A stretch of 64,000 bases of DNA from Cellulosimicrobium cellulans. GTDB lineage: Bacteria; Actinomycetota; Actinomycetes; Actinomycetales; Cellulomonadaceae. Both the position numbers and the translations under genes were made by a program. The notes beneath the pieces were generated by a model. It was not told the DNA's origin, did no database searches, and saw only the letters and a program-made list of their open reading frames with translations. Shown here one piece after another: positions 7,210 to 38,108 of this stretch (positions are counted from its first letter, which is position 1; every line of letters begins with the position of its first letter). Where the stretch lies: the NCBI RefSeq assembly GCF_016921195.1, contig NZ_JAFGYF010000015.1:1-64000 (forward strand). The letters run 5' to 3'.

Positions 7210-8646
7210 TCAGGCCGCGCGGACGGGCTCCGGCGCGGGGCGCGGCCTCGCCGGTGCGGCGGTGTCGTCCTCGCCCGGGCGCTCGGTCCGGCGCTCGGCC
7301 GGTCGCGCGGTCGTGGCGCGCGAGGCGGGGGCGGCCGCCACGAACGCGTCGCGGGGGTGCTGCACCGCGGCGAGCGAGACGACGTCGCGCCCGAACAGCG
7401 CGCCCGTCGCCCACACGGCGACCACCCGGGCCGTGCGCTCCCACGTCGGGATCGCGAGCACGTGGTACCCGCGGTGCACGAGCCACGCGAGGCGCCCTCG
7501 CACGACGAGCCGGCGGAACTCGAACACGCCCGAGCCGAGGCCGAGCGTCGCGACGACGCCGAGGCTCTCGTGCACGTACGGCCGCGTCGGTCGCCCGCGG
7601 CGCGCGGCGACGAGGTTGCGGGCGAGGCGCCGACCCTGCCGCACCGCGTGCTGCGCGTTGGGGACGGTGAGCGCGCCCGGGCGCGGGACCGCGAGGTCGG
7701 GGACGGCCGCGCCGTCGCCCGCGGCCCACGCGTCGGGGACCGTGTCGTCCACCGTGCCGACCCGCAGGTCGGGTCGCGTGACGAGGTAGCCGCGCGCGTC
7801 GACGGGCAGGTCCGTGTGCGTCGCGACGACGGGGTTCGCCGCGTTGCCCGCGGTCCACACGAGCAGACCCGTGGCGAACGACTCGCCGGTCGAGAGCGTC
7901 ACGACGCCGCCCTCGGCGGACACGAGGCCGGCCTCCAGGTGCACGTGCGCACCGCGGCGCTCGAGCTCGCGCACGACCCACCGTCCCGGTCGCTCCGTGA
8001 CCTCCGGCAGGATGCGCGCGTTGCGCTCGACCAGGTGGAACCGCAGCTCCGCCGGGTCGATCTCGGGGTACACGCGCGTGAGGTCGTGCGCGAGCGAGAG
8101 GAGCTCCGCGAACCCCTCGACGCCGGAGAACCCGCCGCCGACGAACGTCACGGTCAGCAGGCGCTCGCGCTCCGGCCCCGCGGGCAGGCTCGCCGCGCGG
8201 TCGAACGACGTGAGCAGCCGGTCGCGGATCGCCACGGCCTCCTCGACGTGCTTCATGCCGATCGCGTGCTCGGCGACGCCCGGCACGGGGAACACGCGCG
8301 TCACGGCGCCCGCCGTGACGACGACCGTGTCGTACGCGAGGTCGTACGACTCGCCCGAGCGCGGTCGCACGACGACCGTGCGGCGCGCGTGGTCCACGCG
8401 CTCGACGGTGCCGTCCACGAGCCGCGTGCGGCGCAGGTGGCTGCGGTGCGCGACGGCGGCGTGCCGCGCCTCGACCGAGCCCGCGACGACCTCGGGCAGG
8501 AACGGCTGGTAGGTCATGTACGGGCGCGGGTCGACGAGCACCAGCTGGACCTCGCCGCGGCGCAGCTCGCGCCGCAGGCGCTTCTCGAGCTCCCGGGCCG
8601 CCGTGAACCCGGCGTAGCCCCCACCGACGACGACGATGCGTTCCAT
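7210..8646 (-). CDS. ndh: type II NADH dehydrogenase (NAD(P)/FAD-dependent oxidoreductase)
   Basis: A 478-residue non-proton-pumping NADH:quinone oxidoreductase. It has an N-terminal FAD dinucleotide fold (ERIVVVGGGYAGFTAAREL), a second Rossmann motif (TVTFVGGGFSGVEGFAELL), the AAGDGAAVPDL segment of the flavin site and a C-terminal amphipathic region around residues 390-440 that in this family docks on the membrane. The last 40 residues are disordered and Pro/Arg/Ala-rich. The ATG at 8646 is preceded by AGGAGG at ideal spacing, so the open frame to 8718 is not used. It could feed electrons to menaquinone in the respiratory chain. No neighbour obviously depends on it. Confidence 0.92.
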   Translation of the reverse strand: MERIVVVGGGYAGFTAARELEKRLRRELRRGEVQLVLVDPRPYMTYQPFLPEVVAGSVEARHAAVAHRSHLRRTRLVDGTVERVDHARRTVVVRPRSGESYDLAYDTVVVTAGAVTRVFPVPGVAEHAIGMKHVEEAVAIRDRLLTSFDRAASLPAGPERERLLTVTFVGGGFSGVEGFAELLSLAHDLTRVYPEIDPAELRFHLVERNARILPEVTERPGRWVVRELERRGAHVHLEAGLVSAEGGVVTLSTGESFATGLLVWTAGNAANPVVATHTDLPVDARGYLVTRPDLRVGTVDDTVPDAWAAGDGAAVPDLAVPRPGALTVPNAQHAVRQGRRLARNLVAARRGRPTRPYVHESLGVVATLGLGSGVFEFRRLVVRGRLAWLVHRGYHVLAIPTWERTARVVAVWATGALFGRDVVSLAAVQHPRDAFVAAAPASRATTARPAERRTERPGEDDTAAPARPRPAPEPVRAA

Positions 8647-8824
8647 GACCGCCTCCTGTGCGGCGCGCCCTGTGCGCGCCTCACCCTGTCGACCGGGTGG
8701 CGGTCCACCTCGTGACATCGTGCGCCAGCGCGGTGCCGAGCGCCACGACCACCGGCGGCCACGCGAGGGCCGGGGAGCGGGGAGGCGTCGTCCGGTGACG
8801 ACCGGCCGTGCGGCGGCGGGACGG

Positions 8825-10438
8825 CTACTGGCGAGCGCTCGCCGTCGGCGGCTGGGCTGCCCGGGACCGCTCGGCGCGCGCGACCAGACCCGCTGTCTCG
8901 GAGAGTCTCGTCTCCTTCATGAAGAACGCGATGACGAAGCCGACGACGCCGAGCGGGACGAGGTACCAGAACGCCGGGGCGAGCGCGTCCGCGTAGGCGT
9001 TCACGACGACGTCGTGCACCGCCCCGGGCAGGTGGTCCACGGTCTCGGGGGTGAGCGAGTCCGGTCCGAGCCCCTTCGGGACCTGCCCGGCCGGAACGCG
9101 TGCCATCGCGTCGTCCAGCGACGCCGTCAGGCGCGTGGTGAAGGCGGTCGAGAGGATGCTGGTCCCGACCGCCGCGCCGATCTCCCGCAAGAAGTTGTTG
9201 GTCGACGTGGCCACGCCGACGAGCTCCGGGGCGACCGAGTTCTGGACCGCGATGACGATGGTCTGGATCACGAGACCCAGGCCGAAGCCGAGGACGAAGA
9301 TCATCGCGCCGAAGGTCGCCACGGAGATCTCCGCGGTGATCCGCGTGAGCCACACCAGGCCCAGTGTCGCGACCCCCATGCCGACGATCGGGAACACCTT
9401 GTACCGGCCCGTGCGCGCGATGAGCAGCCCGGAGCCGATCGCCGTGATCATCAGCCCGGCGGTCATCGGCAGCATGAGCAGGCCTGACTCCGTCGGGCCC
9501 ACGCCGCGTGCCATCTGGAGGAAGGTGGGCAGGAACGACAGGGCGGCGAACATCGCCATCCCGAGCACGAAGGCGATGGAGACCGAGACGGAGAACGTCG
9601 GGCTGCGGAACAGGCCCAGGGGGATCAGGGGATCGCTCGCACGCGTCTCGACGAGCAGGAAGGCGGCCGCCGCGGCAAGGGTCGCCGCGACGAGCCCGAG
9701 GAGCAGCGGGTCCGACCAGTCGTAGCCGGGCGCATCCGTGAGCGACGTCCAGCTGGTCACCAGGACGATCCCCGCGGTGCCCACCGCGAGGAGGGCGGCG
9801 CCCAGCACGTCGAAGCGCCGGGTCGAGCGGTGGGACGGGATGCGCAGCTTGAACCACGCGATGCCGAACGCGGCGATCCCGACCGGGACGTTGATCCAGA
9901 AGCACCACCGCCACCCCGGACCTTCGGTGAACCATCCCCCCAGCAGCGGGCCCAGCACGGTGGCGATGCCGAACACCGCGCCCATGGGGCCCATGTACCT
10001 GCCGCGGTCTTGCGCCGAGACGATGTCGGCGATGATGGCCTGCGACAGGATGACCAGCCCGCCGCCGCCGAGCCCTTGGACGGAGCGCCACGTCACGAGC
10101 TCGACGAACGACCCCGACAGCGCGGAGCCGGTCGAGCCGACGACGAACAGGGCGATCGCGACGAGGAACGGGACGCGGCGCCCGACGAGGTCGCCGACCT
10201 TGCCGTAGATCGGCATGACGATCGCGATGGCGAGCAGGTAGGCGGTGACGATCCATCCCTCGTGCTCGACCGCCCCGAGGTCTCCGACGATCGTGGGCAG
10301 GGCCGTCCCGACGACGGACTGGTCGAGAGCCGACAGGAACATCGCCGCCATGAGAGCGGCGAAGATCACGTAGACGGAGCGCTTGGTGAGGGCGACGTCC
10401 GCGGCGTCTCCCGGAGATGCACCGACGGACGCTGTCAT
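8825..10438 (-). CDS. MFS drug exporter, DHA2 family (14 TM)
   Basis: About 537 residues with the EmrB/QacA layout: TM1 with [17 protein letters not shown], the loop motif [10 protein letters not shown], the motif [11 protein letters not shown] near TM5, and a long series of hydrophobic helices ending near residue 505, so 14 TM segments are likely. Expected role is proton-driven export of hydrophobic drugs or metabolites. I place the start at the ATG at 10438 because TACCGT (10446-10451 on the minus strand) precedes it by 7 nt with no Shine-Dalgarno sequence, the leaderless pattern; a GTG at 10447 is the alternative. It is divergent from thyA. No regulator is adjacent. Confidence 0.9.
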
Positions 10439-21175: not shown

Positions 21176-21910
21176 TCAGGGCACGAGGACGGCAGTGACG
21201 GGTGTCTGCCCGCTCACGGCCGCGAGCCGGACCGCCTCCTCGGGGCGCACGGCGACGAGCGTCACGACGTCCGTGCCTGGCCCGACCGCGCCGAGCAGCC
21301 CGCCCCCGCCCCCGCTCGCGGGCTCCGGTGCCGGCACGACGACGGCCGCACGGGCGAGGTACGGGTCGACGGTCACCGGGTCCTGGCCGTCGGTCGGCAC
21401 GTCCGTCAGCGCGGTCGTGAGCGCATGGTCGCCCGCAGCCAGGAGGTCGACGCGGTCCCCCGGGCCGAGGAGGGCCGCGACGCCGGGGTCGAGCCGGACG
21501 GGCGCGACGACCGTGCCCGCGGGAGCTGCGGCGGCGAGCTCGCCGCCGGCGACGAGCGCGTCCTGGAGCAGGGTGCCCGCGGGCAGGGTGACGGTCGCGC
21601 GGCGCCCGACGACGTCGTCGGGCCGTGCCGCGGCGCCGGCCGGGACGACCTCGACGGACACGAGGTCCACGCGGAGGTCCGCCTCCGTCAGCACGGCCCC
21701 GGCCGGTACCTCCTGCGTCGTGACGACGGCGGGTGCGGTCGGTGGAGGGGGAGGACGGAGCGCCCCGACGACCACGGTGGCCGCGACCCCGCAGCACAGC
21801 GCGGCCACGACGAAGCGGGACCGCCACCACAACCCGCGCAGCAGCCGTCGCCGCGCGGGCGAGCGGTCAGGTCGCGGGTGGGGATCCGGCAGGCGGGACG
21901 AGCGGAGCAT
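21176..21910 (-). CDS. SAF-domain protein (CpaB/RcpC-like)
   Basis: A 244-residue protein with one N-terminal TM helix (RFVVAALCCGVAATVVVGALR), a short Pro stretch, then a SAF domain (about 60-130: VVTTQEVPAGAVLTEADLRVDLVSVEVVPAG and LPAGTLLQDALV). CpaB/RcpC proteins with this architecture belong to Flp/Tad pilus assembly, where they sit in the envelope and may bind peptidoglycan or the secretin. No other tad gene is in the window, so the link is by family only. The start is the first in-frame codon at 21910, just before the membrane anchor. Confidence 0.8.
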   Translation of the reverse strand: MLRSSRLPDPHPRPDRSPARRRLLRGLWWRSRFVVAALCCGVAATVVVGALRPPPPPTAPAVVTTQEVPAGAVLTEADLRVDLVSVEVVPAGAAARPDDVVGRRATVTLPAGTLLQDALVAGGELAAAAPAGTVVAPVRLDPGVAALLGPGDRVDLLAAGDHALTTALTDVPTDGQDPVTVDPYLARAAVVVPAPEPASGGGGGLLGAVGPGTDVVTLVAVRPEEAVRLAAVSGQTPVTAVLVP

Positions 21911-22066
21911 GGCGCGACGGTAGCCGCGCGCCGGGCGACGGCAGGCGCCGACCGTCGAGGACCTGTGGACGGGACGCGGCGTCGACGCCCGGACGCGCCG
22001 TGCGGAGCGGGCTGTGGTCGACCGTCACCGCCAGGGCCGTCGCGGACCAGGCCCCTGGGTGTCGGG

Positions 22067-22372
22067 TCAGGAGGCGGTCGAGCTTCCCGACGACGACGAG
22101 GTGCCGCTCGAGCTGCCGGACGTGCTGCTCGCGCCGGACGCCGCGGAGGCGGCGGCAGGCTTCGACGCGGCGGGCGACGTCGACGACTTCCCGCCCGAGC
22201 GCGAGTCCGTGCGGTAGAAGCCCGAGCCCTTGAACGTCACGCCGACCGAGGAGAACACCTTGCGCAGGCGGCCCGAGCACTCGGGGCACACCGTCAGGGC
22301 GTCGTCGCTGAACGACTGGTGGATGTCGAAGGCGTGACCGCAGGCGGTGCACGTGTACGCGTAGGTGGGCAC
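22067..22372 (-). CDS. FmdB-family zinc-ribbon protein
   Basis: A 101-residue protein. Residues 1-45 are the FmdB/Cxxc_CxxC_SSSS zinc ribbon: PTYAYTCTACGHAF with one CxxC, and TVCPECSGRLRKVFSSVGVTFKGSGFY with the second. The remainder is a Ser/Ala low-complexity tail. Its role is unknown; FmdB-like ribbons are often regulatory or assembly factors. The GTG at 22372 has GAGGAG about 7 nt upstream. It is divergent from the penicillin-acylase gene; the 165-nt gap carries that gene's -10 box. Confidence 0.9.
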   Translation of the reverse strand: MPTYAYTCTACGHAFDIHQSFSDDALTVCPECSGRLRKVFSSVGVTFKGSGFYRTDSRSGGKSSTSPAASKPAAASAASGASSTSGSSSGTSSSSGSSTAS

Positions 22373-22537
22373 GGGTTCTCCTCGTTCACGAGACGGCCGT
22401 CGGGACGGCCGCCGGCGGGTCGGGATCGGGTCGGTCTCGGCCGGGTCGTCGGTGTCAACACCGCCTGGCACTCGAAACTTCCGAGTGCTAATCATACGCG
22501 GACCGGCGCTCGCCCCGGGCCGGGTAGTCTCGCATCC

Positions 22538-25201
22538 GTGTCTGTGCACGAACCCGCCGAGGCCCCCGCCGGTGACACCGTCCCCGGTGCCGACCCCGCG
22601 ACCCCGGTCGAGACCACGGCCCCGCCCCGGCGTCGACGGTCCGGCCGCCGGCGCGTCCTGATCGGCGTGGCCGTGCTGGTCGTCCTCGCGCTCGTCGCCG
22701 GCGCCGCTCTCGTCGTCGTCACCGTGCGTCGACCGCTGCCGCAGACCGCCGGCGAGATCGAGCTCCCCGGGCTCGAGGGCCAGGTCACGGTGCTGCGCGA
22801 CGCCCTGGGCGTGCCGCAGATCTACGCGGACACCCCCGAGGACCTGTTCCGCGCCCAGGGCTACGTGCAGGCGCAGGACCGCTTCTTCGAGATGGACTAC
22901 CGCCGGCACGTCACCGCGGGACGGCTCGCCGAGCTCGTGGGCGACAACCCCGACGCGATCGCCGCCGACACCGTGACGCGGACGTTCGGCTGGCGGCAGG
23001 TCGCCGAGGAGGAGTGGGACGTCGTCTCGCCCGAGACGAAGGCGTACCTCCAGGCCTACGCCGAGGGCGTGAACGCGTACCTCGAGACCCGCAGCCCGTC
23101 CGAGATCGCGATCGAGTACACCGTGCTCGGACTCCAGGTCGACGTCGTCGAGCCCGAGCCCTGGGACCCCGTCGACTCGCTCGCCTGGCTCAAGGCGATG
23201 GCGTGGGACCTCCGCGGCAACTACGACGACGAGCTGGAGCGCGCGCTGTCGTACAGCACCCTCCAGGACGCCGGGCGCGTCGCCGCGCTGTTCCCCGCCT
23301 ACCCGTCCGACGTCAACGCGCCGATCCTCGATCCCGGCGAGCTCGACAACCCCCAGCAGGTCGCGCTCGAGCTCGGCCCCGAGGCTCGCGCCGCGTACGG
23401 CTCGGAGCACCTCCGGAGCGCGCTCGAGGCCGCGGACCGTGCGCTCGACGCCGTCCCCGTGCTTATCGGGCGCGGCGAGGGCACGGGCTCCAACTCGTGG
23501 GTCGTGTCCGGCGACCACACCGCCAGCGGCAAGCCGATCCTCGCCAACGACCCGCACCTGAGCCTCGGCGCCCCCGGGATCTGGGCGCAGGTCGGGCTGC
23601 ACTGCAACGAGGTGGGGCCGCAGTGCGCGTTCGACGTCGCGGGCTTCTCGTTCGCCGGGTTCCCCGGCGTCATCATCGGCCACAACGCGCAGCTCGCGTG
23701 GGGCCTGACGAACATGGGCGCCGACGTCACCGACTTCTTCGTCGAGCGCGTGCGCGACGACACCTACCTGCGCGGGGACGAGTGGATGCCGCTCGAGACC
23801 CGCACCGAGACGCTGCGCGTCGCCGGGGGAGAGGACGTCGACCTCGAGATCCGCTCGACCGTGCACGGGCCGATCGTCTCCGAGGCGATCCCCGCGACCG
23901 AGTCCGCCGTCGAGACTCCCGCCCTCGACACGCGCCTGGGCGAGTACGCCGTCTCGCTCCAGTGGACCGCGCTCGAGCCGGGCCGCACCGCCGACGCGGT
24001 CTTCGCGTTCAACCTCGCGCAGGACGCCGACGACATGCAGGCCGCCGCCGCGCTGTTCGAGGTGCCCGCCCAGAACATCGTCTTCGCGACGGTGGACGGC
24101 CAGATCGGCTACCAGGCGCCCGGCAAGATCCCGGTCCGCCAGGCGGTGCCCGACGCCGAGGTGCCCTCGGACGGCACGTGGCCGCGCGACGGCTCCGACG
24201 AGCGCTACGACTGGCAGGGCTACGTCCCGAGCGAGCAGATGCCGCGCGTCGTCGACCCTGCCGAAGGGTTCGTCGTCGCCGCCAACCAGGCCGTCCTGCC
24301 CGCCGGCGTCGCGCCGTTCCTCACGACCGACTGGGACTACGGCTACCGCTCGCAGCGCATCCGCCAGCTCCTCGAGGCCGAGATCTCCGCCGGACGGCCC
24401 GTCGACGTCGACACGATGAACGAGATCCAGACGGACGACCGCAGCCCCTACGCCGAGGTGCTGGTGCCGCTCCTGCTCGACCAGGAGATCGACGACAGCT
24501 TCGCCGCCGAGGGGCAGGCGCTCCTCGCGGACTGGGACTACCGCACCGACACCGACTCCGCCGCGGCCGCCTACTTCGCCGCCGTCTGGCGCAACCTGCT
24601 CCAGCTCACCTTCTGGGACGACCTGCCCGAGTCGGCGCGGCCGAACGGCGGGAGCCGCTGGCTCGCCGTCGTGCAGAACCTCCTGGAGAACCCCACCGAC
24701 CCGTTCTGGGACGACCGCCAGACCGTCAGCGTCGTCGAGACCCGCGACGAGGTCCTCACCCAGGCGCTCGTCTCCGCGCGCCTGGACCTCACCGTCGAGC
24801 AGAGCAAGCAGCCCTCCGACTGGGCCTGGGGCACGCTCCACGTGCTCGCCCTCGAGCACCCGGTCCTCGGCGGCGAGTCCATCCCCGGCCCCGTCCGCAA
24901 CTGGGTCAACCCCGACCCCGTCGGCATGCCCGGCGGCTCGTCGATCGTCAACGCGACGGCCTGGGACGCGGCCTCCGGCTCGTTCGACGTGACGGCGGGC
25001 CCGTCGATGCGGATGGTCGTCGACCTCGACGACCTCGACCGCTCCACCTGGGTCACCGTCACCGGGACCTCCGGCCACCCGGCGTCCACGCACTACTCCG
25101 ACCAGCTCAAGACCTGGGCCGGCGGCGAGACCTACGACTGGCCGTTCTCCACCCAGGCCGTCGCCGAGGCGAGCAAGGACGAGCTCACGCTCGTCCCGTA
25201 G
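22538..25201 (+). CDS. penicillin acylase family protein (Ntn hydrolase, membrane-anchored)
   Basis: An 887-residue precursor. Residues 1-35 are cytosolic and basic, followed by a TM helix (VLIGVAVLVVLALVAGAALVV). The alpha region begins with VTVLRDALGVPQIYADTPEDLFRAQGYVQAQDRFFEMD, diagnostic for the family. GSNSWVVSG carries the expected N-terminal Ser of the beta subunit exposed by autocatalytic cleavage; NDPHLSLGAPGIW and GVIIGHNAQLAWGLTNMG follow. Family members cleave amide bonds of penicillins, acyl-homoserine lactones or lipoamino acids; the substrate here is unknown. The GTG at 22538 follows TAGTCT (22525-22530) by 7 nt, a leaderless layout. The 3' end faces the folate gene 12 nt away. 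Confidence 0.93.
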   Translation: MSVHEPAEAPAGDTVPGADPATPVETTAPPRRRRSGRRRVLIGVAVLVVLALVAGAALVVVTVRRPLPQTAGEIELPGLEGQVTVLRDALGVPQIYADTPEDLFRAQGYVQAQDRFFEMDYRRHVTAGRLAELVGDNPDAIAADTVTRTFGWRQVAEEEWDVVSPETKAYLQAYAEGVNAYLETRSPSEIAIEYTVLGLQVDVVEPEPWDPVDSLAWLKAMAWDLRGNYDDELERALSYSTLQDAGRVAALFPAYPSDVNAPILDPGELDNPQQVALELGPEARAAYGSEHLRSALEAADRALDAVPVLIGRGEGTGSNSWVVSGDHTASGKPILANDPHLSLGAPGIWAQVGLHCNEVGPQCAFDVAGFSFAGFPGVIIGHNAQLAWGLTNMGADVTDFFVERVRDDTYLRGDEWMPLETRTETLRVAGGEDVDLEIRSTVHGPIVSEAIPATESAVETPALDTRLGEYAVSLQWTALEPGRTADAVFAFNLAQDADDMQAAAALFEVPAQNIVFATVDGQIGYQAPGKIPVRQAVPDAEVPSDGTWPRDGSDERYDWQGYVPSEQMPRVVDPAEGFVVAANQAVLPAGVAPFLTTDWDYGYRSQRIRQLLEAEISAGRPVDVDTMNEIQTDDRSPYAEVLVPLLLDQEIDDSFAAEGQALLADWDYRTDTDSAAAAYFAAVWRNLLQLTFWDDLPESARPNGGSRWLAVVQNLLENPTDPFWDDRQTVSVVETRDEVLTQALVSARLDLTVEQSKQPSDWAWGTLHVLALEHPVLGGESIPGPVRNWVNPDPVGMPGGSSIVNATAWDAASGSFDVTAGPSMRMVVDLDDLDRSTWVTVTGTSGHPASTHYSDQLKTWAGGETYDWPFSTQAVAEASKDELTLVP

Positions 25202-25213
25202 TCCCGGGGTCGG

Positions 25214-25846
25214 CTACGGGAGCCAGCGCCAGCCGAGGGGGGTCGCGACGGCGTCGACGGTCTTGTCGTGCGACTCCACGGGGAGCGGGCGGTCGGACGC
25301 GTCGTAGACCTCCTCGGGGAACACGACGGCGACGACCTTGGTCCCGGGCCGCAGGTGCTCGAGGGCGCGGTCGTACCAGCCGCCGCCCTGGCCGAGCCGG
25401 ACGCCGCGCGAGTCGACGGCGAGCGCGGGGGCGATGACGACGTCGGCCTGGGCGATGGCCTCGGCGCCGAGCGGCGGGGTGCCGGGTTCGGGCGGTCGGC
25501 CGGGGGCGCGCACCTGGAGGTCGGCCGGGCCGTCGTACAGGGCCCAGTCGCGCTGGAGGCCGGCGCCGAGCACAGGGAGCAGGACGCGCACGCCGCGCGC
25601 GGAGAGGCGTTCGAGCATCTCCGTGGTGCCGGGCTCCGCGGGGCGGGCGGCGTAGGTCGCGACGCACGTGGCGGCGGCGACCTCGGGGATGGTCTCGACG
25701 ACGTCGGCGATCGCGGCGGCCGCTTCCTTGCGGAGCCGCTCGGACCGCGCCTGGCGGTTGGTGCGGATGGCCTTGCGGAGGATCTCCTTCGCGTCCTCGG
25801 CTTCGATGCTTCCGTGCAGGGGGTACGGCTGGACCGGGCCATTCAT
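25214..25846 (-). CDS. 5-formyltetrahydrofolate cyclo-ligase
   Basis: A 210-residue 5-FTHF cyclo-ligase (YgfA/MTHFS family) making 5,10-methenyl-THF with ATP. The family signature GQGGGWYDRAL is at about 152-162, preceded by ADVVIAPALAVDSRGVRLG; the N-terminal EILRKAIRTNRQARS fits the basic start of the family, and the sequence ends VATPLGWRW. It is divergent from the mutase fusion gene; the 179-nt gap holds both promoters. Confidence 0.93.
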   Translation of the reverse strand: MNGPVQPYPLHGSIEAEDAKEILRKAIRTNRQARSERLRKEAAAAIADVVETIPEVAAATCVATYAARPAEPGTTEMLERLSARGVRVLLPVLGAGLQRDWALYDGPADLQVRAPGRPPEPGTPPLGAEAIAQADVVIAPALAVDSRGVRLGQGGGWYDRALEHLRPGTKVVAVVFPEEVYDASDRPLPVESHDKTVDAVATPLGWRWLP

Positions 25847-26025: not shown

Positions 26026-28272
26026 ATGACCGCGACGACGCCCGCGAAGCCCAGCGCCACGACCCCGCGTCCGCGCGGTGGAGCGCACAGCCGGACCGCG
26101 AGGGCCGCCGTCGTGCTCGCCGCGGGGCACGACGCCGCGTCGCGCCAGCTCCTGTCCCGGCCGCTGGGCAGCGCGACGGTCGTCGAGCTGGCCGTGGCGA
26201 ACGTGCGCCGCGTGGTCGACGCGAGCCGCATCGTCGTCGTGGTGGCGCCCCACGACCCGACGGTGCGCGAGCTGCTCGGCGAGGACGTCGTCTACGTGGA
26301 GCAGGAGGCGCCGCTCGGCACGGGCGACGCGGTCCTCGCCGCGCGCGGGGCGGTCGCCTCCGTGCTGGGGCCCGGGGTCGAGGAGCCGGTGCTGGTCGCG
26401 TACGCGGACACGCCCCTGCTGCGCTCGGAGTCGCTCCTGGGCCTGCTCACGCGCCACACGCTCACCGGCGCGGACCTGTCGCTCCTCTCCGCCGTCGTCG
26501 ACGACCCGGACGGCTACGGCCGCGTGGTGCGCGCCGAGGGCGAGATCACCGCGATCCTCGAGTCGTCCGAGGCGGGCGGCGTCGTCGAGCCGCGCACGGA
26601 GATCAACGTCGGTGCGTACGTCGCGGCGCCGGGCCTGCTGTTCGGCGAGCTCGAGCGCATGGCGTCCGACGGAGAGCATCGCCTCACCGAGCTGGCGCGC
26701 CGCGTCATCGGCGCGGGCAAGCGCATCTCGTCGTACCGGATCGTCGACGTCGACGAGGTGCGCGGCATCAACACGCCCGACGAGCTCGCCCAGGCGGCGG
26801 ACATCGTCCTCAAGCGCCTGTTCGTCCCGAAGAAGAACACGGACACCAAGATCGTCTTCGGCACCGGCGGCTGGCGCGCGGTCATCGGCGAGGGCTACAC
26901 GCTCGCGAACGTGCGCCGGCTGTGCCAGGCCATCGCGAACGAGACGATCCGCCGCGGCCTCGACGCCAAGGGCGTCGTGATCGGCGGCGACCGCCGCTTC
27001 CTCTCGCGCGAGTCGGCCATCGCCGCGGCCGAGGTCTTCGCGGGCAACAACATCGCCGTGACCCTCCTGCCCGACGACGTCCCGACGCCGCTCGTGACGT
27101 TCGCCGCGCCCTACCTCGGCGCGGCGTACGGGATCATCGTCACGTCGAGCCACAACCCGCCCGAGTGGAACGGCATGAAGGTGTTCCGTCAGGACGGCTC
27201 GCTCCCGCTCGACGACGAGACGGACCGCTACCAGGACGAGGCGAACGCGCTGTCCGTCGACGACGTCATCACGCTCGACATCGACGTGGCCCGCCGCACG
27301 GGCGTCGTCGTCGACCGGTCGCTCACCGACCCGTACGTCGACGCGATCGAGCGGATCATCGACGTCGAGGCCGTGCGCGGCTCGGACCTCCAGGTGATCG
27401 TCGACCCGATGTACGGCACGAGCCAGCTCACGCTCGGCACGATCCTGTCCGACATGCGCGTGCGCTCGGAGTTCATCCACGCGACGCACAACCCGCTGTT
27501 CGGCGGCGTCGCGCCCGCGCCGGACCTCCAGCGCCTGAGCACGCTCGTGACGATGATCCAGCAGGGCGGGGGACGCTACGACCTCGGCATGGCGACGGAC
27601 GGCGACTCCGACCGCATCGGCATCGTCGACGAGACCGGCGAGTACATCTCCACGAACGACCTGCTCCTGCTCCTGTACTGGTACCTGCACGAGGTCCGCG
27701 GCGAGAAGGGCGGCGTCGTGCGCAACCTCGCGACGACGCACCTGCTCGACCGGCTCGCCGCCCACTTCGGCGAGGAGTCGCGCGAGGTCAAGGTCGGCTT
27801 CAAGCACGTCACCGCGGGCATGGAGGAGATCGGCGCCGTGCTCGGCGGCGAGTCGTCCGGCGGCCTGACGATCCGCGGCTGGATCCTCGGCAAGGACGGC
27901 ATCTTCGCGTGCGCCCTGGTGGCCGAGATGCTGGCCCGCACGGGCAAGCGGATCTCCGAGCTGCGCGCGATGATCTACGAGATCACGGGTCGCCTCTCGA
28001 CGCTCGAGGCGGGCGTGCCCGCGACCCCGGAGATGCGCGTCGAGGTGCCGCGGCGCCTCGAGGCGGAGCCGCTCACGCACGTCGGCCCGTACCCCGTCGT
28101 CTCGGTCTCCCACCTCGACGGCACCAAGATCCTCCTCGAGAACGACAACTGGGCGCTCCTGCGGTTCTCCGGAACCGAGCCCGTCCTGCGCATGTTCGTC
28201 GAGGCGGACTCGCCCGAGAAGGCCGCCGAGCTCCTCGAGTGGCTCCGAGGGTTCGTCACCGCCGGCGTCTGA
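26026..28272 (+). CDS. GlmU-like nucleotidyltransferase fused to hexose-phosphate mutase
   Basis: A 748-residue two-domain cytosolic protein. Residues 27-260 follow the GlmU pyrophosphorylase fold: LGTGDAV (97-103), YADTPLL (126-132), DPDGYGRVVR (160-169) and EINVGAY (192-198), but the nucleotide loop LAAGxGTRMxS is replaced by LAAGHDAASR (31-40). Residues 270-748 are an alpha-D-phosphohexomutase with the phosphoserine loop TSSHNPPEWNG (Ser375), metal loop DGDSDRIG (525-532), sugar loop GGESSGG and phosphate site FSGTEPVLRM. Paired with the GH94 phosphorylase 79 nt downstream, it should handle the sugar-1-phosphate released there, by mutation to the 6-phosphate and perhaps by nucleotide transfer. 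The ATG follows GAGGA by 7 nt. Confidence 0.85.
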   Translation: MTATTPAKPSATTPRPRGGAHSRTARAAVVLAAGHDAASRQLLSRPLGSATVVELAVANVRRVVDASRIVVVVAPHDPTVRELLGEDVVYVEQEAPLGTGDAVLAARGAVASVLGPGVEEPVLVAYADTPLLRSESLLGLLTRHTLTGADLSLLSAVVDDPDGYGRVVRAEGEITAILESSEAGGVVEPRTEINVGAYVAAPGLLFGELERMASDGEHRLTELARRVIGAGKRISSYRIVDVDEVRGINTPDELAQAADIVLKRLFVPKKNTDTKIVFGTGGWRAVIGEGYTLANVRRLCQAIANETIRRGLDAKGVVIGGDRRFLSRESAIAAAEVFAGNNIAVTLLPDDVPTPLVTFAAPYLGAAYGIIVTSSHNPPEWNGMKVFRQDGSLPLDDETDRYQDEANALSVDDVITLDIDVARRTGVVVDRSLTDPYVDAIERIIDVEAVRGSDLQVIVDPMYGTSQLTLGTILSDMRVRSEFIHATHNPLFGGVAPAPDLQRLSTLVTMIQQGGGRYDLGMATDGDSDRIGIVDETGEYISTNDLLLLLYWYLHEVRGEKGGVVRNLATTHLLDRLAAHFGEESREVKVGFKHVTAGMEEIGAVLGGESSGGLTIRGWILGKDGIFACALVAEMLARTGKRISELRAMIYEITGRLSTLEAGVPATPEMRVEVPRRLEAEPLTHVGPYPVVSVSHLDGTKILLENDNWALLRFSGTEPVLRMFVEADSPEKAAELLEWLRGFVTAGV

Positions 28273-28286
28273 CGGCACCGGACCTT

Positions 28287-28310
28287 CCCCCACCCCCACC
28301 CCCACCCCCA
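28287..28310. repeat. (CCCCCA)4 tract, potential i-motif/G-quadruplex
   Basis: Four runs of five C separated by single A, with further CCCC runs to 28330, lie between the mutase and phosphorylase genes. The template strand carries GGGGGT repeats that could form a G-quadruplex. Length variation by slippage is likely. Confidence 0.8.
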
Positions 28311-28351
28311 CAGCCCCTAGCCCCACCCCCACGACAGGAACCAGAGCAACG

Positions 28352-30808
28352 ATGCGCTACGGCCACTTCGACACCGCGCACGACGAGTACGTCGTCGAGC
28401 GCCCCGACGTCCCGGTCTCGTGGACGAACTACCTCGGCAGCAAGAACCTGTGCACCGTGCTGTCGCACACCGGCGGGGGGTACTCGTACTACAAGAGCTC
28501 GCAGTACGGGCGGATCACGCGGTTCCGGCAGAACGGTGTCCCGGTCGACCGGCCGGGCCACTACGTGTACCTGCGCGACGACGCGGACGGCGACTACTGG
28601 TCGGTCTCGTGGCAGCCGGTCGGCAAGCCGTTCGTCGGCCCCGGCGAGGAGCTGGACCCCGCGGGCAAGGCGGGCCGGTGGACGACCCGGCACGGGCTCG
28701 GCTACTCGACGTTCCGCGCCGAGTACAAGGGTGTCGATGCCGAGCAGACGGTCTTCATCCCCGTGGACGACGACGTCGAGGTCTGGGACGTCCGGCTGAC
28801 GAACACGACGGACGAGGTGCGCGAGCTCACCGTCGGGTCGTACGTGGAGTTCAGCTTCCACACGATCACGATCGACAACCAGAACCTGCAGATGTCGCTC
28901 TACGCGTCCGGTTCCTCCTACGAGGACGGGATCATCGAGTACGACTTCTACTACGAGCCGTGGACGTACCACTTCTTCACGTCGAGCGAGACGCCGTCGT
29001 CGTACGACTCGCTGCGCGACAACTTCATCGGCCCGTACCGCTCCGAGGCGAACCCGGTCGCGATCGAGCGCGGGCACGGTTCGAACGAGTCCGCGACGAC
29101 GCAGAACCACTGCGGCTCGCTCCAGCACAAGGTCACGCTCGCGCCGGGCGAGACCAAGCGCCTCGTCTACATGCTCGGCTACGGCTCGCGCGACGCGGCC
29201 GGTCGTGCGATCCAGGCGAAGTACTCGGACGTCGCGACCGTCGACGCCGAGCGCGCGCGGCTCCGCGCCTTCTGGCGCGCCAAGCAGGACAAGCTGCGGA
29301 TCCGCACGCCGCACGAGGGCATGAACACGATGATCAACTCGTGGACCCTCCTCCAGGCGGAGACGTGCGTGCAGTGGTCGCGCTTCGCGTCGTTCGTCGA
29401 GGTGGGCGGTCGCGCGGGCCTCGGGTACCGCGACACCGCGCAGGACGTCATGAGCGTCATCCACTCGAACCCGACGAAGACGCGCCAGCGCATCGTCGAG
29501 CTCCTGCGCGCGCAGACGGAGGCCGGGTACGGCCTGCACCTGTTCGACCCCCAGGCGTTCGACCCCGACGCAGAGAAGCTGCCCGACGTCCCGTCGCCGA
29601 CGATCGTGCCCACGGTCGACCCGAAGGACCTCATCCACGGCCTCGAGGACACGTGCTCGGACGACCACCTGTGGCTCGTGCCGTCGGTCGTCGAGTACGT
29701 CAAGGAGACGGGCGACCGCGCGTTCCTCGACCTGGAGATCCCCTTCGCCGAGGGCACGCCCGCGACGGTGTACGACCACCTGGTCAGGGCGCTCGAGTTC
29801 TCCGCGCAGCAGGTGGGCCAGAACGGCGTCGCGCTCGGCCTGCGGGCCGACTGGAACGACTGCCTCAACCTCGGCGGCGGCGAGACGTCGCTCGTGACAT
29901 TCCTGCACGCGTGGGCGATCGGCGCGTTCCTCGAGATCGCGGAGCCGCTCGCCGCGGCGGGCGACGAGCGGGCCGAGGCGGACGTCGCGCGGTTCACGGC
30001 GGAGCGGGAGCGCATCGCGAAGGTCGCGGACGCCCAGCTCTGGGACGGGCGCTGGTGGATCCGCGGTTACACGCGCGACGGCGTGAAGATCGGCTCGGCC
30101 GAGAACGAGGAGGGCAAGATCTTCCTCGAGCACCAGGCCTGGCCCGTCATCGCGGGCATCACGAGCCAGGAGCGCGGCGAGGCGTCGATGGACGCGGTGC
30201 GCGAGCTGCTCGGCTCCGAGTACGGCAACCACCTCAACTGGCCGGCGTTCACCACGGTCGACGACACGGTCGGGTTCGTCACGCGCGTCTACCCGGGCAT
30301 CAAGGAGAACGCCGCGATCTTCTCGCACCCCAACGCGTGGCCGATCATCGCCGAGGCGATGCTCGGGCGCGGCGACGAGGCGGTGCAGTTCTACGACGCG
30401 ATCCTGCCGTACCACCAGAACGACAACATCGAGGTGCGCGGCGCGGAGCCGTACGCGTACGTCCAGTTCCTCTACGGCCGCGACCACGAGTGGTTCGGCA
30501 AGGCGCAGAACCCCTGGCTCACGGGCACGGCCGGGTGGATGTACACCGCGGTGACCAAGTACGTGCTCGGCGTGCGCCTCGCGCTCGACGGCCTCGTCGT
30601 CGACCCGTCGATCCCGAAGGACTGGGACGGGTTCGAGGTGCGCCGCGAGTGGCGCGGCGCCGTCTACGACATCGAGGTCCGCAACCCCGACCACGTGTCG
30701 AAGGGTGTGCGCTCCGTGACGGTCGACGGCGTCGAGCACGACCCGGCCGCCCCGATCCCCGCGCTGCCCGCGGGCACCGAGGCGAAGGTCGTCGTCACGC
30801 TGGGCTGA
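28352..30808 (+). CDS. GH94 phosphorylase, probably N,N'-diacetylchitobiose phosphorylase
   Basis: An 818-residue intracellular GH94 enzyme. It starts MRYGHFD-x-x-x-x-EYV like all disaccharide phosphorylases of the family, and the general-acid Asp lies in GLRADWNDCLN (Asp500/503). Segments DRPGHYVYLRDD, YWSVSWQPV, RTGLGYRDTAQD-like GLGYRDTAQDV, AGYGLHLFDP, DTCSDDHLWL and NPDHVSKGV agree with my recollection of Vibrio chitobiose phosphorylase, whereas cellobiose phosphorylases carry GMGFRDSNQD at the same place. Expected reaction: (GlcNAc)2 + Pi to GlcNAc-1-P + GlcNAc. No signal peptide, so an importer must supply the disaccharide. AGGA precedes the ATG. Cellobiose phosphorylase remains the alternative. 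Confidence 0.85.
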   Translation: MRYGHFDTAHDEYVVERPDVPVSWTNYLGSKNLCTVLSHTGGGYSYYKSSQYGRITRFRQNGVPVDRPGHYVYLRDDADGDYWSVSWQPVGKPFVGPGEELDPAGKAGRWTTRHGLGYSTFRAEYKGVDAEQTVFIPVDDDVEVWDVRLTNTTDEVRELTVGSYVEFSFHTITIDNQNLQMSLYASGSSYEDGIIEYDFYYEPWTYHFFTSSETPSSYDSLRDNFIGPYRSEANPVAIERGHGSNESATTQNHCGSLQHKVTLAPGETKRLVYMLGYGSRDAAGRAIQAKYSDVATVDAERARLRAFWRAKQDKLRIRTPHEGMNTMINSWTLLQAETCVQWSRFASFVEVGGRAGLGYRDTAQDVMSVIHSNPTKTRQRIVELLRAQTEAGYGLHLFDPQAFDPDAEKLPDVPSPTIVPTVDPKDLIHGLEDTCSDDHLWLVPSVVEYVKETGDRAFLDLEIPFAEGTPATVYDHLVRALEFSAQQVGQNGVALGLRADWNDCLNLGGGETSLVTFLHAWAIGAFLEIAEPLAAAGDERAEADVARFTAERERIAKVADAQLWDGRWWIRGYTRDGVKIGSAENEEGKIFLEHQAWPVIAGITSQERGEASMDAVRELLGSEYGNHLNWPAFTTVDDTVGFVTRVYPGIKENAAIFSHPNAWPIIAEAMLGRGDEAVQFYDAILPYHQNDNIEVRGAEPYAYVQFLYGRDHEWFGKAQNPWLTGTAGWMYTAVTKYVLGVRLALDGLVVDPSIPKDWDGFEVRREWRGAVYDIEVRNPDHVSKGVRSVTVDGVEHDPAAPIPALPAGTEAKVVVTLG

Positions 30809-33007: not shown

Positions 33008-33080
33008 GGGGCTATGGCGCAGTTGGTAGCGCGTCTCGTTCGCAATGAGAAGGTCGGGGGTTCGAATCCCCCTAGCTCCA
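33008..33080 (+). tRNA. tRNA-Ala (anticodon CGC)
   Basis: A 73-nt cloverleaf with acceptor stem GGGGCTA/TAGCTCC (one G-U), D-loop GGCGCAGTTGGTAGCGC, anticodon CGC at 33041-33043 in a loop TTCGCAA and T-arm GGGGGTTCGAATCCCCC. It reads GCG, an abundant alanine codon here. CCA is not encoded. TAGTCT (32989-32994) is the likely -10 box. Confidence 0.97.
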
Positions 33081-33087
33081 CCGGGTG

Positions 33088-33117
33088 AAGGCCCCGGACC
33101 TCACGGTCCGGGGCCTT
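33088..33117 (+). terminator. terminator of tRNA-Ala
   Basis: A perfect 13-bp stem (33088-33100 with 33105-33117) and loop TCAC, followed by CGTCGTCC rather than a T-run. It starts 8 nt after the tRNA. Confidence 0.92.
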
Positions 33118-33215
33118 CGTCGTCCGCCAAAAGTGCTCGGACGGGGTCTCACCGGTCGGCGCGGCGCTCGCGGAGGCGCCGCGCAGGCGTGCGAGCGCCC
33201 ACCTATGCTGGCCGC

Positions 33216-34112
33216 GTGGCCCTCACCGAGCTCGTCCCGGTCCCCGGCGGGACGTTCCGCATGGGTTCCGACCACCACTACCCCGAGGAAGGGCCCGCGC
33301 ACGACCGGGAGATCGAGCCGTTCCTGCTGGAGCGGCACGCGGTGACGAACGCGCAGTACGCGGCGTTCGTCGCGGACACCGGCTACGTGACCGTCGCGGA
33401 GCGCGCGCTCGACCCGGCCGACTTTCCGGGTGCTGACCCGGCGGACCTCGTACCCGGGGGGCTCGTGTTCACCCCGACGGCCGGTCCGGTCGACCTGCGC
33501 GACTGGCGGCAGTGGTGGCGCTGGCAGCCCGGGGCGTCGTGGCGCTCGCCGCAGGGACCGGGCTCCGACGTCGACGACCGCCCGGACCACCCGGTGGTGC
33601 TCGTCGCGTTCGAGGACGCGTCGGCGTACGCGGCGTGGGCGGGCCGCCGCCTGCCGACGGAGGCCGAGTGGGAGCGTGCCGCGCGCGGCGGGCTCGAGGG
33701 CGCCGAGTTCGCGTGGGGCGACGAGCTCGCGCCGGGCGGACGGCCGATGGCGAACACGTGGCTGGGCCGGTTCCCGTACCTCAACGAGGGCTGGGGCGGG
33801 ACGTCGCCCGTCGGCTCCTACGAACCGAACGCGTACGGGCTGGTGGACCTCGTCGGGAACACGTGGGAGTGGACGGCCGACACGTTCACCCCCCGTCACG
33901 TCGTTCCCGGGACGCGCGGGCCGGACGCCGGTGCGCGGCCGAACCTCCTGGCCCCGACCACGTCGCCCCAGGTCATGCGCGTCACCAAGGGCGGGTCGCA
34001 CCTGTGCGCGCCCGAGTACTGCCGCCGGTACCGGCCCGCGGCCCGGTCACCGCAGTCGGACGACAGCGCGACGACCCACCTCGGGTTCCGCTGCGCCGCA
34101 GACGCCGGTTGA
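33216..34112 (+). CDS. formylglycine-generating enzyme
   Basis: A 298-residue FGE-sulfatase-domain protein: GGTFRMGSDHHYPEEGPAH at the start, VSYEDA-like VAFEDASAYAAWAGRRLPTEAEWERAARG in the middle, and the C-terminal KGGSHLCAPEYCRRYRPAARSP with two cysteines five apart (Cys264 and Cys269), the spacing of the copper-binding pair in true FGEs. It should oxidise a Cys in C-x-P-x-R of sulfatases to formylglycine with oxygen. No sulfatase lies in the window, so it must act on clients elsewhere. The GTG at 33216 is set by TATGCT (33204-33209) 6 nt upstream and lacks a Shine-Dalgarno site. Confidence 0.92.
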   Translation: MALTELVPVPGGTFRMGSDHHYPEEGPAHDREIEPFLLERHAVTNAQYAAFVADTGYVTVAERALDPADFPGADPADLVPGGLVFTPTAGPVDLRDWRQWWRWQPGASWRSPQGPGSDVDDRPDHPVVLVAFEDASAYAAWAGRRLPTEAEWERAARGGLEGAEFAWGDELAPGGRPMANTWLGRFPYLNEGWGGTSPVGSYEPNAYGLVDLVGNTWEWTADTFTPRHVVPGTRGPDAGARPNLLAPTTSPQVMRVTKGGSHLCAPEYCRRYRPAARSPQSDDSATTHLGFRCAADAG

Positions 34113-36602: not shown

Positions 36603-38108
36603 ATGGTCTCGGTCATCCCCCAGCCCCAGCAGGTCGAGCCCGGGACGGGCCACGTCCCCGTCGTCACGCTGGAGGTCCACGCGCTCGGTCTCGAGCGGAC
36701 CGCCCCGTGGCTCGGGGACCTGGCCGCCGCGCTCCTGAGCGGCCTCGACGGTGTCGCCGCGACGCACGACGACCCGGCGTCCGGCGCCGCGGCGGGTGCC
36801 GCGTCGCGCTCCGCGACCCCCACCGCGCTCGTGCTCCGGATCGACGAGCTGGCCGGTCCGGAGGGCTCCACGAGCCCGGAGCGGTACAGCCTGGTCGTGG
36901 ACGAGGCCGGCGTGACCGCGACCGCCGCCGAGCCCGCCGGGCTGCTCCACGCGGTGCAGACGCTGCGGCAGCTCGTCGAGGCGCCCGGCCCGGGCGACGA
37001 GCCCGCGCGGGTGCCGCACGTCGTCGTGCACGACGCGCCCCGGTACCCCTGGCGCGGCCTGTCCGTGGACGTCGCGCGGACGTTCTTCGGCCTCGACGCC
37101 CTGCGTACCGTGATCGACGTCGCCGCGGCGTACAAGCTCAACGTGCTCCACCTGCACCTCACCGACGACCAGGGCTGGCGCATCGAGTCCCCGTCCCGCC
37201 CCGAGCTCGCCAAGCTCTCCTCGGGGAGCGACACGTCCGGCGGGAAGGGCGGCCACCTGTCGCTCGCGGACTTCCGCGCGCTGCAGGACCACGCGGCGGA
37301 GCGCTTCGTGCGTGTCGTGCCGGAGATCGACGTCCCCGGCCACATCAACGCGGCGACGCACGTCTACGGCGACCTCATGCCCGACGGCGTCGCGACCGAC
37401 GCGTACTCGGGCATCGAGGTCGGCTTCTCGCGTCTCACGTTCGATCTGCCCGCGACGGAGCCGTTCCTGCGCGACGTCTTCACGGACCTCGCCCGCGCGA
37501 CGGACGGGGAGCACGTGCACCTCGGCGGTGACGAGGTGCTGAAGATGGAGCCCGCCGAGTACGCGCAGTTCGTCGAGCTGTGCGAGCGCCTGATCCTCGA
37601 GGCCGGGAAGAAGCCGGTCGCGTGGCAGGAGGCAGCCAAGGCGCCGCTGCGCCCGGGCACTCTCGTGCAGTACTGGGACACGCACCCCATGGACCTCACG
37701 TACCTGGTCGACGCCGCGAAGGCCGGGGCGCGCGTCATCCTGTCGCCCGCGAACCGCGTCTACCTCGACATGCGCTACACGGCGGACTTCGACCCCGCCC
37801 TGGGGCAGGAGTGGGCCGGTCTGGTCGACGTGCGCGACTCCTACGACTGGGAGCCCGAGGAGGTCGTGCCCGGACTGCCGGTCGACACGATCGAGGGCGT
37901 CGAGGCGGCGGTGTGGACCGAACGCGTCCCGACGCTCGACGCGCTGTTCACCATGCTCCTGCCGCGCCTGAGCGCCGTCGCGGAGGTCGGCTGGACCGCA
38001 CCGGAGCGCAAGGACTGGGACGGCTTCCGTCGCCGCGTCGCCCGCGAGGCGCACGCCTGGCGCCGCGCGGGGATCGCGTTCCACGAGTCCGCGCAGGTCG
38101 AGTGGTGA
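36603..38108 (+). CDS. intracellular GH20 beta-N-acetylhexosaminidase
   Basis: A 501-residue GH20 enzyme. An N-terminal GH20b-like domain (1-145) precedes the barrel that begins HDAPRYPWRGLSVDVARTFF. The LHLTDDQGWRIE strand, PEIDVPGH and the catalytic pair in HLGGDEVLKM (Asp310, Glu311, substrate-assisted mechanism) are present, and WTERVPTLDALFTMLLPRL closes it. There is no signal peptide, so it acts in the cytosol on imported chito-oligosaccharides or muropeptide sugars, complementing the GH94 phosphorylase 6 kb away. The ATG at 36603 has GAGG 8 nt upstream; an upstream in-frame start at 36546 lacks one. Confidence 0.93.
   Translation: MVSVIPQPQQVEPGTGHVPVVTLEVHALGLERTAPWLGDLAAALLSGLDGVAATHDDPASGAAAGAASRSATPTALVLRIDELAGPEGSTSPERYSLVVDEAGVTATAAEPAGLLHAVQTLRQLVEAPGPGDEPARVPHVVVHDAPRYPWRGLSVDVARTFFGLDALRTVIDVAAAYKLNVLHLHLTDDQGWRIESPSRPELAKLSSGSDTSGGKGGHLSLADFRALQDHAAERFVRVVPEIDVPGHINAATHVYGDLMPDGVATDAYSGIEVGFSRLTFDLPATEPFLRDVFTDLARATDGEHVHLGGDEVLKMEPAEYAQFVELCERLILEAGKKPVAWQEAAKAPLRPGTLVQYWDTHPMDLTYLVDAAKAGARVILSPANRVYLDMRYTADFDPALGQEWAGLVDVRDSYDWEPEEVVPGLPVDTIEGVEAAVWTERVPTLDALFTMLLPRLSAVAEVGWTAPERKDWDGFRRRVAREAHAWRRAGIAFHESAQVEW

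What the first reader, a model, noticed from the sequence alone, without database searches (positions are those of the whole stretch)
26026..30808. Nucleotidyltransferase-mutase fusion next to a chitobiose-type phosphorylase
A GlmU-like domain fused to a phosphohexomutase lies 79 nt before a GH94 enzyme that resembles N,N'-diacetylchitobiose phosphorylase. Phosphorolysis would give GlcNAc-1-P, which the mutase domain could turn into GlcNAc-6-P and a GlmU-like domain into UDP-GlcNAc. One polypeptide could thus sit at the branch between catabolism and cell-wall precursor synthesis. The GH20 hexosaminidase at 36603 fits the same theme.
Basis: partly seen in the sequence, partly recalled or inferred. 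Interest (0 to 1): 0.8.

Follow-up and report, generated by a model that had tools for sequence, protein, structure and literature searches.

The report
Mutase fused to remodelled GlmU domain
Next to a likely chitin-sugar phosphorylase, this bacterium carries an enzyme that should feed the released sugar phosphate into metabolism, and the extra front part of that enzyme resembles a cell-wall-precursor enzyme whose catalytic loop has been rebuilt while its binding pocket was kept, which hints at a sensor rather than a second enzyme.

Summary
ORF 26026-28272 (748 aa) joins a GlmU-type nucleotidyltransferase (NT) domain to a complete phosphohexomutase; 79 nt later, 28352-30808 encodes a GH94 enzyme scoring 1034 bits with Vibrio proteolyticus chitobiose phosphorylase and at most 496 with other solved entries. 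The pairing is conserved: of 396 genomes of the order, 19 have this GH94 type and 18 of those the fusion, 16 on the same contig. Fused mutases form one clade spanning three phyla. UDP-GlcNAc synthesis is not supported: in 49 distinct NT domains the GxGTR glycine and arginine and the PK lysine are replaced in all, the threonine in 48. Against this, a shifted arginine is conserved in 46, so the loop is remodelled, not decayed, and activity is not excluded. Pocket positions are kept in 38-43 of 43 main members; dN/dS is 0.21; the genome has a separate intact GlmU. Best reading: a catabolic pair, (GlcNAc)2 -> GlcNAc-1-P -> GlcNAc-6-P, like Vibrio VC0612/VC0611, whose mutase gained a probably non-catalytic GlmU module, perhaps a regulator (inference). 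New variant of a known kind; interest 0.55.

The parts
26026..28272 (+). Fusion gene: remodelled GlmU-type nucleotidyltransferase domain + alpha-D-phosphohexomutase, 748 aa
26101..26820 (+). GlmU-type NT domain, residues about 26-265; keeps LAAG, Q93, G98-T99, D128, Y164-G165, E179, N194 and N249 (roles in uridine, metal and GlcNAc binding recalled from GlmU)
   Evidence: AF2 pLDDT 93.5 and Foldseek TMq 0.88 to S. pneumoniae GlmU
26116..26169 (+). Former signature loop, residues 31-48 (LAAGHDAASRQLLSRPLG): GxGTR and PK replaced and three residues shorter than GlmU; residues 37-43 predicted as a short helix; R40 conserved in 46 of 49 domains
26848..28257 (+). Phosphohexomutase domain, residues about 275-744; phosphoserine loop TSSHNP (373-378), metal loop DGDSDR (525-530), sugar loop GGESSGG (607-613), phosphate loop RFSGTEP (713-719)
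28273..28351 (+). 79-nt gap between the two genes, with a C-rich (CCCCCA)n tract at 28287-28332
28352..30808 (+). GH94 phosphorylase of the N,N'-diacetylchitobiose phosphorylase type, 818 aa; D503 aligns with D492 of the V. proteolyticus enzyme (catalytic role of D492 recalled)
36603..38108 (+). GH20 beta-N-acetylhexosaminidase, 5.8 kb downstream; thematically related, linkage to the pair not shown to be conserved

Best explanation
This is a two-gene unit for intracellular chitin-disaccharide catabolism. GH94 splits (GlcNAc)2 with phosphate into GlcNAc and GlcNAc-1-P (inferred from family). The mutase half of the fusion turns GlcNAc-1-P into GlcNAc-6-P, which enters the NagA route (inferred). 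The front half is a GlmU uridylyltransferase module whose NTP-phosphate loop has been rebuilt (shown in sequence), so it probably no longer makes UDP-GlcNAc at a useful rate (inferred). It kept its fold (predicted) and most metal, uridine and GlcNAc positions, and is under purifying selection (shown). Most likely it is a non-catalytic binding or regulatory module for the mutase (inferred).
For: GH94: 1034 bits to the solved V. proteolyticus ChbP against at most 496 bits to any other solved entry. Mutase: four domains and all loops. [quoted passage not shown] A Subdoligranulum plasmid has ChbP (53% identity) followed by a stand-alone mutase of this family without NT, with ABC sugar-importer genes further on. 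Co-occurrence: 18 of 19 genomes with ChbP-type GH94 have the fusion, 16 on one contig, among 396. Loop: in 49 distinct NT domains G and R of GxGTR and K of PK replaced in 49, T in 48; Q, G-T, D, N, T, N kept in 43 of 43 main members, Y of GYGR in 40, its G in 41, E in 38. Loop mutants of homologues: GlmU R18A 6000-fold down, GalU double mutant about 500-fold down, as stated in PMC4643126 (passages). Selection: NT dN/dS 0.209 (0.161-0.267), GlmU NT 0.142 (0.099-0.201), mutase 0.065. Separate intact GlmU, a GlmM and a NagA-like gene in the genome.
Against: No assay of any of the three activities. An Arg (window R40) near the old loop is conserved in 46 of 49 NT domains and might stand in for the lost Arg. 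The NT domain evolves faster than its mutase, and six genomes of one group (f20/g42) also lost the sugar-site hairpin, so a GlcNAc-binding role cannot hold there. One Chloroflexota fusion (G201) has no detected GH94. Three of 17 genomes of the genus showed no fusion, one of them 83% complete. NagB was not searched for. No conserved GlcNAc-type operator was found upstream.
Confidence: 0.67

Rival explanations
1. One reading: the fusion is a true bifunctional enzyme whose GlmU-like half makes UDP-GlcNAc from GlcNAc-1-P, so one polypeptide serves both catabolism and wall synthesis.
For: GlmU-like predicted fold; pocket positions kept in 38-43 of 43 main members; an Arg close to the place of the GlmU Arg is conserved in 46 of 49; the neighbouring GH94 would supply GlcNAc-1-P.
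Against: G and R of GxGTR and K of PK replaced in 49 of 49 and T in 48; loop mutants of homologues lose 500- to 6000-fold activity (PMC4643126 passages); intact GlmU elsewhere in the genome.
Confidence: 0.13
2. The NT half is only a structural or tethering domain, for example for folding, oligomerisation or docking to GH94, and its pocket binds nothing of importance. (This shares the catabolic core of the best explanation, so the odds overlap.)
For: Faster evolution than the mutase; in f20/g42 genomes the sugar-site hairpin is deleted but the fusion persists with ChbP.
Against: Outside f20/g42 the pocket positions are kept in 38-43 of 43 members over three phyla, which a mere scaffold would not need.
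Confidence: 0.25
3. GH94 is a cellobiose-type phosphorylase and the mutase an ordinary phosphoglucomutase; the unit serves cellulose breakdown.
For: Relatives of this host degrade cellulose (general knowledge); GH94 includes many Glc-1-P enzymes (PMC8950772 passages).
Against: Twice the bit score to ChbP over CBP entries; the mutase has a GGESSGG sugar loop unlike the genome's GlmM (GGEQSG), shared with the stand-alone mutase beside a ChbP in Subdoligranulum.
Confidence: 0.05
4. The NT domain performs another reaction with its rebuilt loop, such as use of a different nucleotide or another sugar-phosphate reaction.
For: The new loop is itself conserved: in 49 domains Asp at the old GTR glycine in 39, Ser at the old Met in 39 and Arg in 46 at the next well-filled column. 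Leishmania UDP-Glc pyrophosphorylase works without the GxGTR Arg (PMC4643126 passage).
Against: No homologue with such chemistry is known to me (recall); acidic residues stand where the triphosphate would lie (inference from the alignment).
Confidence: 0.08

Closest known systems
Vibrio (GlcNAc)2 operon, VC0612 (chitobiose phosphorylase) and VC0611 (GlcNAc-1-P mutase)
   Same: ChbP in one operon with a GlcNAc-1-P mutase, same inferred chemistry (PMC5209532, passages)
   Different: VC0611 is recalled as a stand-alone mutase without an NT domain (recall, not fetched); different phylum
GlmU N-terminal uridylyltransferase domain
   Same: Predicted fold (TMq 0.88 to 1hm8), best family match, pocket positions
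   Different: No acetyltransferase half, GxGTR and PK replaced, fused to a mutase
GMPPA, non-catalytic paralogue of GDP-mannose pyrophosphorylase B
   Same: A nucleotidyltransferase-family protein without catalysis that regulates: GMPPA binds GDP-mannose and inhibits GMPPB (PMC11228364, abstract and passages)
   Different: GMPPA is a separate protein acting on an NDP-sugar synthase; here the module is fused to a mutase and ligand binding is untested
GalF of E. coli
   Same: NT paralogue with an altered GLGTR loop and very low activity (PMC4643126, passages)
   Different: GalF keeps residual activity and is not fused to a mutase
V. proteolyticus chitobiose phosphorylase (1v7v)
   Same: Full-length match, 1034 bits, aligned catalytic region
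   Different: The window enzyme is not among the three GH94 ChbPs listed in PMC8950772 (V. furnissii, V. proteolyticus, Ignavibacterium album; passages)

Membership tests
GlmU uridylyltransferase | LAAGxGTR NTP-phosphate loop and PK lysine | tested here: not met
   of 49 distinct domains 0 keep G or R in register, 1 keeps T, 0 keep Lys (1 Arg); a shifted Arg is present in 46
GlmU uridylyltransferase | Metal and uridine/GlcNAc positions (Q76, T82, D105, G140, E154, N169, N227 in E. coli numbering, recalled) | tested here: met
   38-43 of 43 main members; not met in the 6 f20/g42 members for T82, G140, E154, N169
GlmU uridylyltransferase | GlmU-type fold | tested here: met
   AF2 model pLDDT 93.5; the first 37 Foldseek matches are GlmU chains
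GlmU uridylyltransferase | C-terminal acetyltransferase half | tested here: not met
   NT is followed directly by PGM_PMM domains
alpha-D-phosphohexomutase (PGM/PMM) | Four domains with phosphoserine, metal, sugar and phosphate loops | tested here: met
GlcNAc-1-P mutase | Activity on GlcNAc-1-P | not testable with these tools
   inferred from ChbP linkage and the Vibrio precedent
GH94 N,N'-diacetylchitobiose phosphorylase | Closer in sequence to characterised ChbP than to CBP | tested here: met
   1034 versus 447-493 bits for CBP entries; by score only, no GH94 tree was built
GH94 N,N'-diacetylchitobiose phosphorylase | Phosphorolysis of (GlcNAc)2 | not testable with these tools
   needs assay
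Regulatory NT pseudoenzyme (GMPPA-like) | Loss of catalysis with retained ligand binding and effect on a partner | not tested
   only the sequence preconditions were examined; binding and regulation need experiment

The most novel reading that the evidence does not exclude
The fused GlmU module is an allosteric sensor of UDP-GlcNAc (or of UTP or GlcNAc-1-P) that throttles the mutase, so that GlcNAc-1-P released by chitobiose phosphorolysis is spared for the cell's separate GlmU when wall precursor is short and burned when it is plentiful. It would be a wall-precursor gauge built into a catabolic enzyme from a rebuilt copy of the wall-precursor enzyme itself.
Probability: 0.35. Interest if true: 0.75.

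Novelty: new variant of a known kind. Interest (0 to 1): 0.55.

Why it matters
ChbP yields GlcNAc-1-P, the direct substrate of GlmU's uridylyltransferase, so a cell using it has to share that metabolite between burning and building. A GlmU-derived module with a rebuilt catalytic loop, on exactly the competing enzyme, makes control of this branch point directly testable with purified proteins. It also warns annotators: on present evidence the protein should not be named a bifunctional UDP-GlcNAc pyrophosphorylase/mutase. It is a clear case of an enzyme module that, as far as the tree shows, was fused once, changed its signature loop and kept its pocket in most members over three phyla.

Tried and rejected
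DasR-type operator upstream of the fusion: the recalled consensus TGGTCTAGACCA gave 4 matches with up to 2 mismatches in the window (chance mean 0.88; 3 of 100 shuffles reached 4). The nearest, at 25690, lies inside the divergent gene and recurs only in close relatives, so no regulatory claim is made.

GH20 as part of the unit: found within the fetched flanks of 2 of the 37 loci (L053, L065). For Cellulosimicrobium the 8-kb flank stops short of the expected place, so it was not testable there.

First dN/dS run: the GH94 column was spoiled by spurious upstream frame; only the bounded rerun is used. There 13 of 14 genomes were used for all four genes; G012 was dropped because the GH94 start motif was not found.

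First tree lost 8 rows to a too-strict motif, among them the key L066; the second restored them. Both give one fused clade. In the second, L066 is flagged as a long branch, so its place as nearest outgroup is unsure.

The full recount showed T of GxGTR kept in 1 of 49 (an f20/g42 member), and an Arg conserved in 46 of 49 at the next well-filled column. My earlier wording that no basic residue is conserved in the loop was wrong. I lowered the best explanation from 0.72 to 0.67 and raised the active-enzyme rival from 0.08 to 0.13 and the other-chemistry rival from 0.06 to 0.08 for that reason; the scaffold and cellobiose rivals were trimmed by 0.02 and 0.01 to match.

Frames: L058 and L062 have a frame break in or near the NT half. 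I did not decide between sequencing error and mutation, and left them and the truncated L064 out of A1 and. The Oerskovia merdavium locus (L057 and L160, the same sequence) has other sequence after the fusion while its GH94 begins at base 103 of another contig: assembly join or insertion, undecided.

Papers: searches showed no title or abstract start describing this fusion; several listed only part of what they found (15 of 775, 25 of 41, 10 of 30), and the library holds only open-licence papers. The Chitinispirillum (PMC4814513) and Acidobacteria (PMC6252331) papers, passages only, describe the ChbP to GlcNAc-1-P mutase route by annotation; the passages mention no fusion.

Full report
What is there. 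ORF 26026-28272 (748 aa) and ORF 28352-30808 (818 aa) lie in the same direction 79 nt apart. The first has a nucleotidyltransferase (NT) domain followed by the four domains of a PGM/PMM mutase; the second is GH94. The NT part is GlmU-derived: GlmU models are its best NCBIfam matches (up to 115.9 bits here, 176.3 bits in the Chloroflexota member L061), and an AlphaFold2 model of the NT domain (pLDDT 93.5) has GlmU chains as its first 37 Foldseek matches, best TMq 0.88. The host is probably a Cellulosimicrobium: the nearest named loci, from C. cellulans and C. funkei strains, are 98% identical over the fusion.

The GH94 enzyme. Against the sequences of solved structures it scores 1034 bits with V. 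proteolyticus chitobiose phosphorylase (1v7v) and at most 496 bits with any other entry; that 496-bit entry (8bou) also bears the chitobiose name, and the cellobiose phosphorylases score 447-493 bits. A review lists three characterised GH94 chitobiose phosphorylases, from V. furnissii, V. proteolyticus and Ignavibacterium album, all giving alpha-GlcNAc-1-P (PMC8950772, passages). Activity here is inferred, not shown.

The mutase. The phosphoserine loop (TSSHNP), metal loop (DGDSDR), sugar loop (GGESSGG) and phosphate loop (RFSGTEP) are all present. In one search the sugar loop GGESSGG is shared by all 6 fused mutases shown and by stand-alone relatives L067, L069, L084 and L176 (AGESSGG in L066), and differs from the genome's own GlmM (GGEQSG) and from the stand-alone L095 (GGEESGG). 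[quoted passage not shown]

The NT domain has a rebuilt catalytic loop. I aligned 49 distinct NT domains with six GlmU proteins of the genus (66 domains extracted, duplicates removed by the part after the first 40 letters; L058, L062 and L064 left out for frame breaks or truncation, recounted in full). The G and R of GxGTR are replaced in 49 of 49, T in 48 of 49, and the lysine of PK in 49 of 49 (one Arg, in L094); most loops are two or three residues shorter. Among the 43 'main' members Q, G-T, D, N, T and N are kept in 43 of 43, the LAAG glycine in 42, the GYGR glycine in 41 and tyrosine in 40, and the E154-type glutamate in 38 (E. coli numbering and roles recalled). But the new loop is not random: of the 49, 39 have Asp at the old GTR glycine, 39 have Ser at the old Met, and 46 have Arg (window R40) at the next well-filled column. 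That Arg could stand in for the lost one, or grip a bound ligand; the alignment of this gapped loop is uncertain by a residue or two.

Why I still think it does not make UDP-GlcNAc. [quoted passage not shown] coli GlmU R18A lost 6000-fold activity (citing Brown et al. 1999), and that the GalU loop double mutant lost about 500-fold (PMC4643126, passages). The same paper notes that Leishmania UDP-Glc pyrophosphorylase works without this Arg, so its loss alone is not proof. The genome has a separate GlmU with the loop intact (LAAGEGTRMKSSTPKMLH), a GlmM over its cut-off, and a NagA-like gene just below its cut-off (210.6 against 225.65 bits).

It is not decaying junk. Over 13 genomes of the window's own genus, pooled dN/dS is 0.209 for the fusion NT (95% by codon bootstrap 0.161-0.267), 0.142 for the GlmU NT of the same genomes (0.099-0.201), 0.174 for the first 380 residues of GH94 (0.132-0.225) and 0.065 for the mutase (0.045-0.092). 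So it is constrained, perhaps somewhat less than GlmU (the intervals overlap) and clearly less than its own mutase.

Conservation of the unit. Within the genus 14 of 17 genomes, own included, have the fusion; three showed none, one of them 83% complete. Of 37 named loci, 32 have both halves (two with a frame break), one is truncated and four match over the mutase only. In 396 genomes of the order, 19 have a ChbP-type GH94 at 780 bits or more; 18 of them have the fusion, 16 on the same contig; the 19th (G927, 69% complete) has a contig that begins inside the GH94 match. Six genomes with a 45-46% identical GH94 have no fusion at E <= 1e-130, and 15 genomes have a match over the mutase part only (470-504 bits) and no GH94 at E <= 1e-160. 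In 73 locus rows with the fusion (rows, not genomes; several genomes appear twice), GH94 lies within 488 nt downstream on the same strand in 69. The exceptions are one Oerskovia assembly (two rows), a contig end, and the Chloroflexota genome G201, in which no GH94 was found, although the tool warns that an empty answer shows nothing by itself. Elsewhere the fusion is rare: in the phylum of L061 (Chloroflexota) 4 of 350 genomes including the centre genome itself, in the phylum of L060 (Acidobacteriota) 1 of 347, which is the centre genome itself.

Origin. In a tree of 37 mutases the 19 fused rows form one clade (98/96; one change in 99% of bootstrap trees). Its nearest outgroup is a stand-alone Chloroflexota mutase (L066, a long branch, so its place is unsure) encoded beside an ABC sugar importer; then come stand-alone mutases of Bacillota and of a group in the window's own order. 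The actinobacterial rows nest among Chloroflexota rows. One of the stand-alone outgroup mutases, on a Subdoligranulum plasmid, directly follows a 53% identical ChbP, with ABC importer genes further downstream. So the mutase-ChbP partnership exists without the NT domain, and the NT domain was added later, once as far as this tree shows. The changed loop is common to all 49 descendants compared.

Further loss in one branch. In six draft genomes of one group (f20/g42) the NT half has also lost the GYGR...E hairpin, with T82 -> P and N169 -> D, yet the fusion and ChbP persist, on the same contig in five of the six. This counts against an indispensable GlcNAc-binding role in that branch and for a partly structural one.

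How it most likely works. Shown in sequence: the architecture, the conserved partner, the complete mutase, the rebuilt NTP loop and the kept pocket. Inferred from families: (GlcNAc)2 + Pi -> GlcNAc + GlcNAc-1-P (GH94); GlcNAc-1-P -> GlcNAc-6-P (mutase); onward by NagA. Inferred with less support: the NT module binds UDP-GlcNAc or a relative and tunes the mutase. The precedent is GMPPA, a catalytically inactive pyrophosphorylase paralogue that binds GDP-mannose and inhibits its active partner (PMC11228364, abstract and passages). I give the catabolic core with a probably non-catalytic NT module 0.67, and the UDP-GlcNAc-sensor reading 0.35.

The anatomy and the catabolic idea hold; the UDP-GlcNAc-making step is not supported, though not excluded without an assay. 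This is a new variant of a known kind: the Vibrio-type ChbP/GlcNAc-1-P mutase pair with an added, remodelled GlmU module.

Noticed in passing
window 28287-28332: C-rich tandem tract (CCCCCA, about 7 copies) fills much of the gap between the fusion and GH94.
   Followed up: no
L170, L171, L172, L173, L175, L019: In six draft genomes of one group (f20/g42) of the window's order the NT half has lost a further hairpin (GYGR to E154 region) while the fusion and ChbP persist.
   Followed up: partly
L060 6577-7908 and 12790-14718: In the Terriglobia MAG an AmpG-like MFS transporter (141 bits, below the 350-bit cut-off) precedes the fusion-ChbP pair and a GH3 enzyme follows it.
   Followed up: partly
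L213 7053-8534, 8762-10180 and 11025-12341: A group of the window's order (f11/g31) has a stand-alone mutase of this family near a ROK-type regulator and a GHMP kinase, without detected GH94.
   Followed up: partly
L058 and L062, within 8001-8983: Frame break in or near the NT half of two otherwise similar fusions (Paraoerskovia sediminicola, Luteimicrobium album); error or mutation not decided.
   Followed up: no
window 33045-34112: Sulfatase-modifying factor (FGE-type) protein, 264 bits, between the pair and GH20.
   Followed up: no
window 21425-25201: Penicillin amidase family protein, 785 bits over residues 453-1247 of the ORF; the true start is probably well inside the ORF.
   Followed up: no
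own genome G000:C18:374208-375029: A second, weak GH94-like stretch (40.7 bits) inside a long frame elsewhere in the genome.
   Followed up: no
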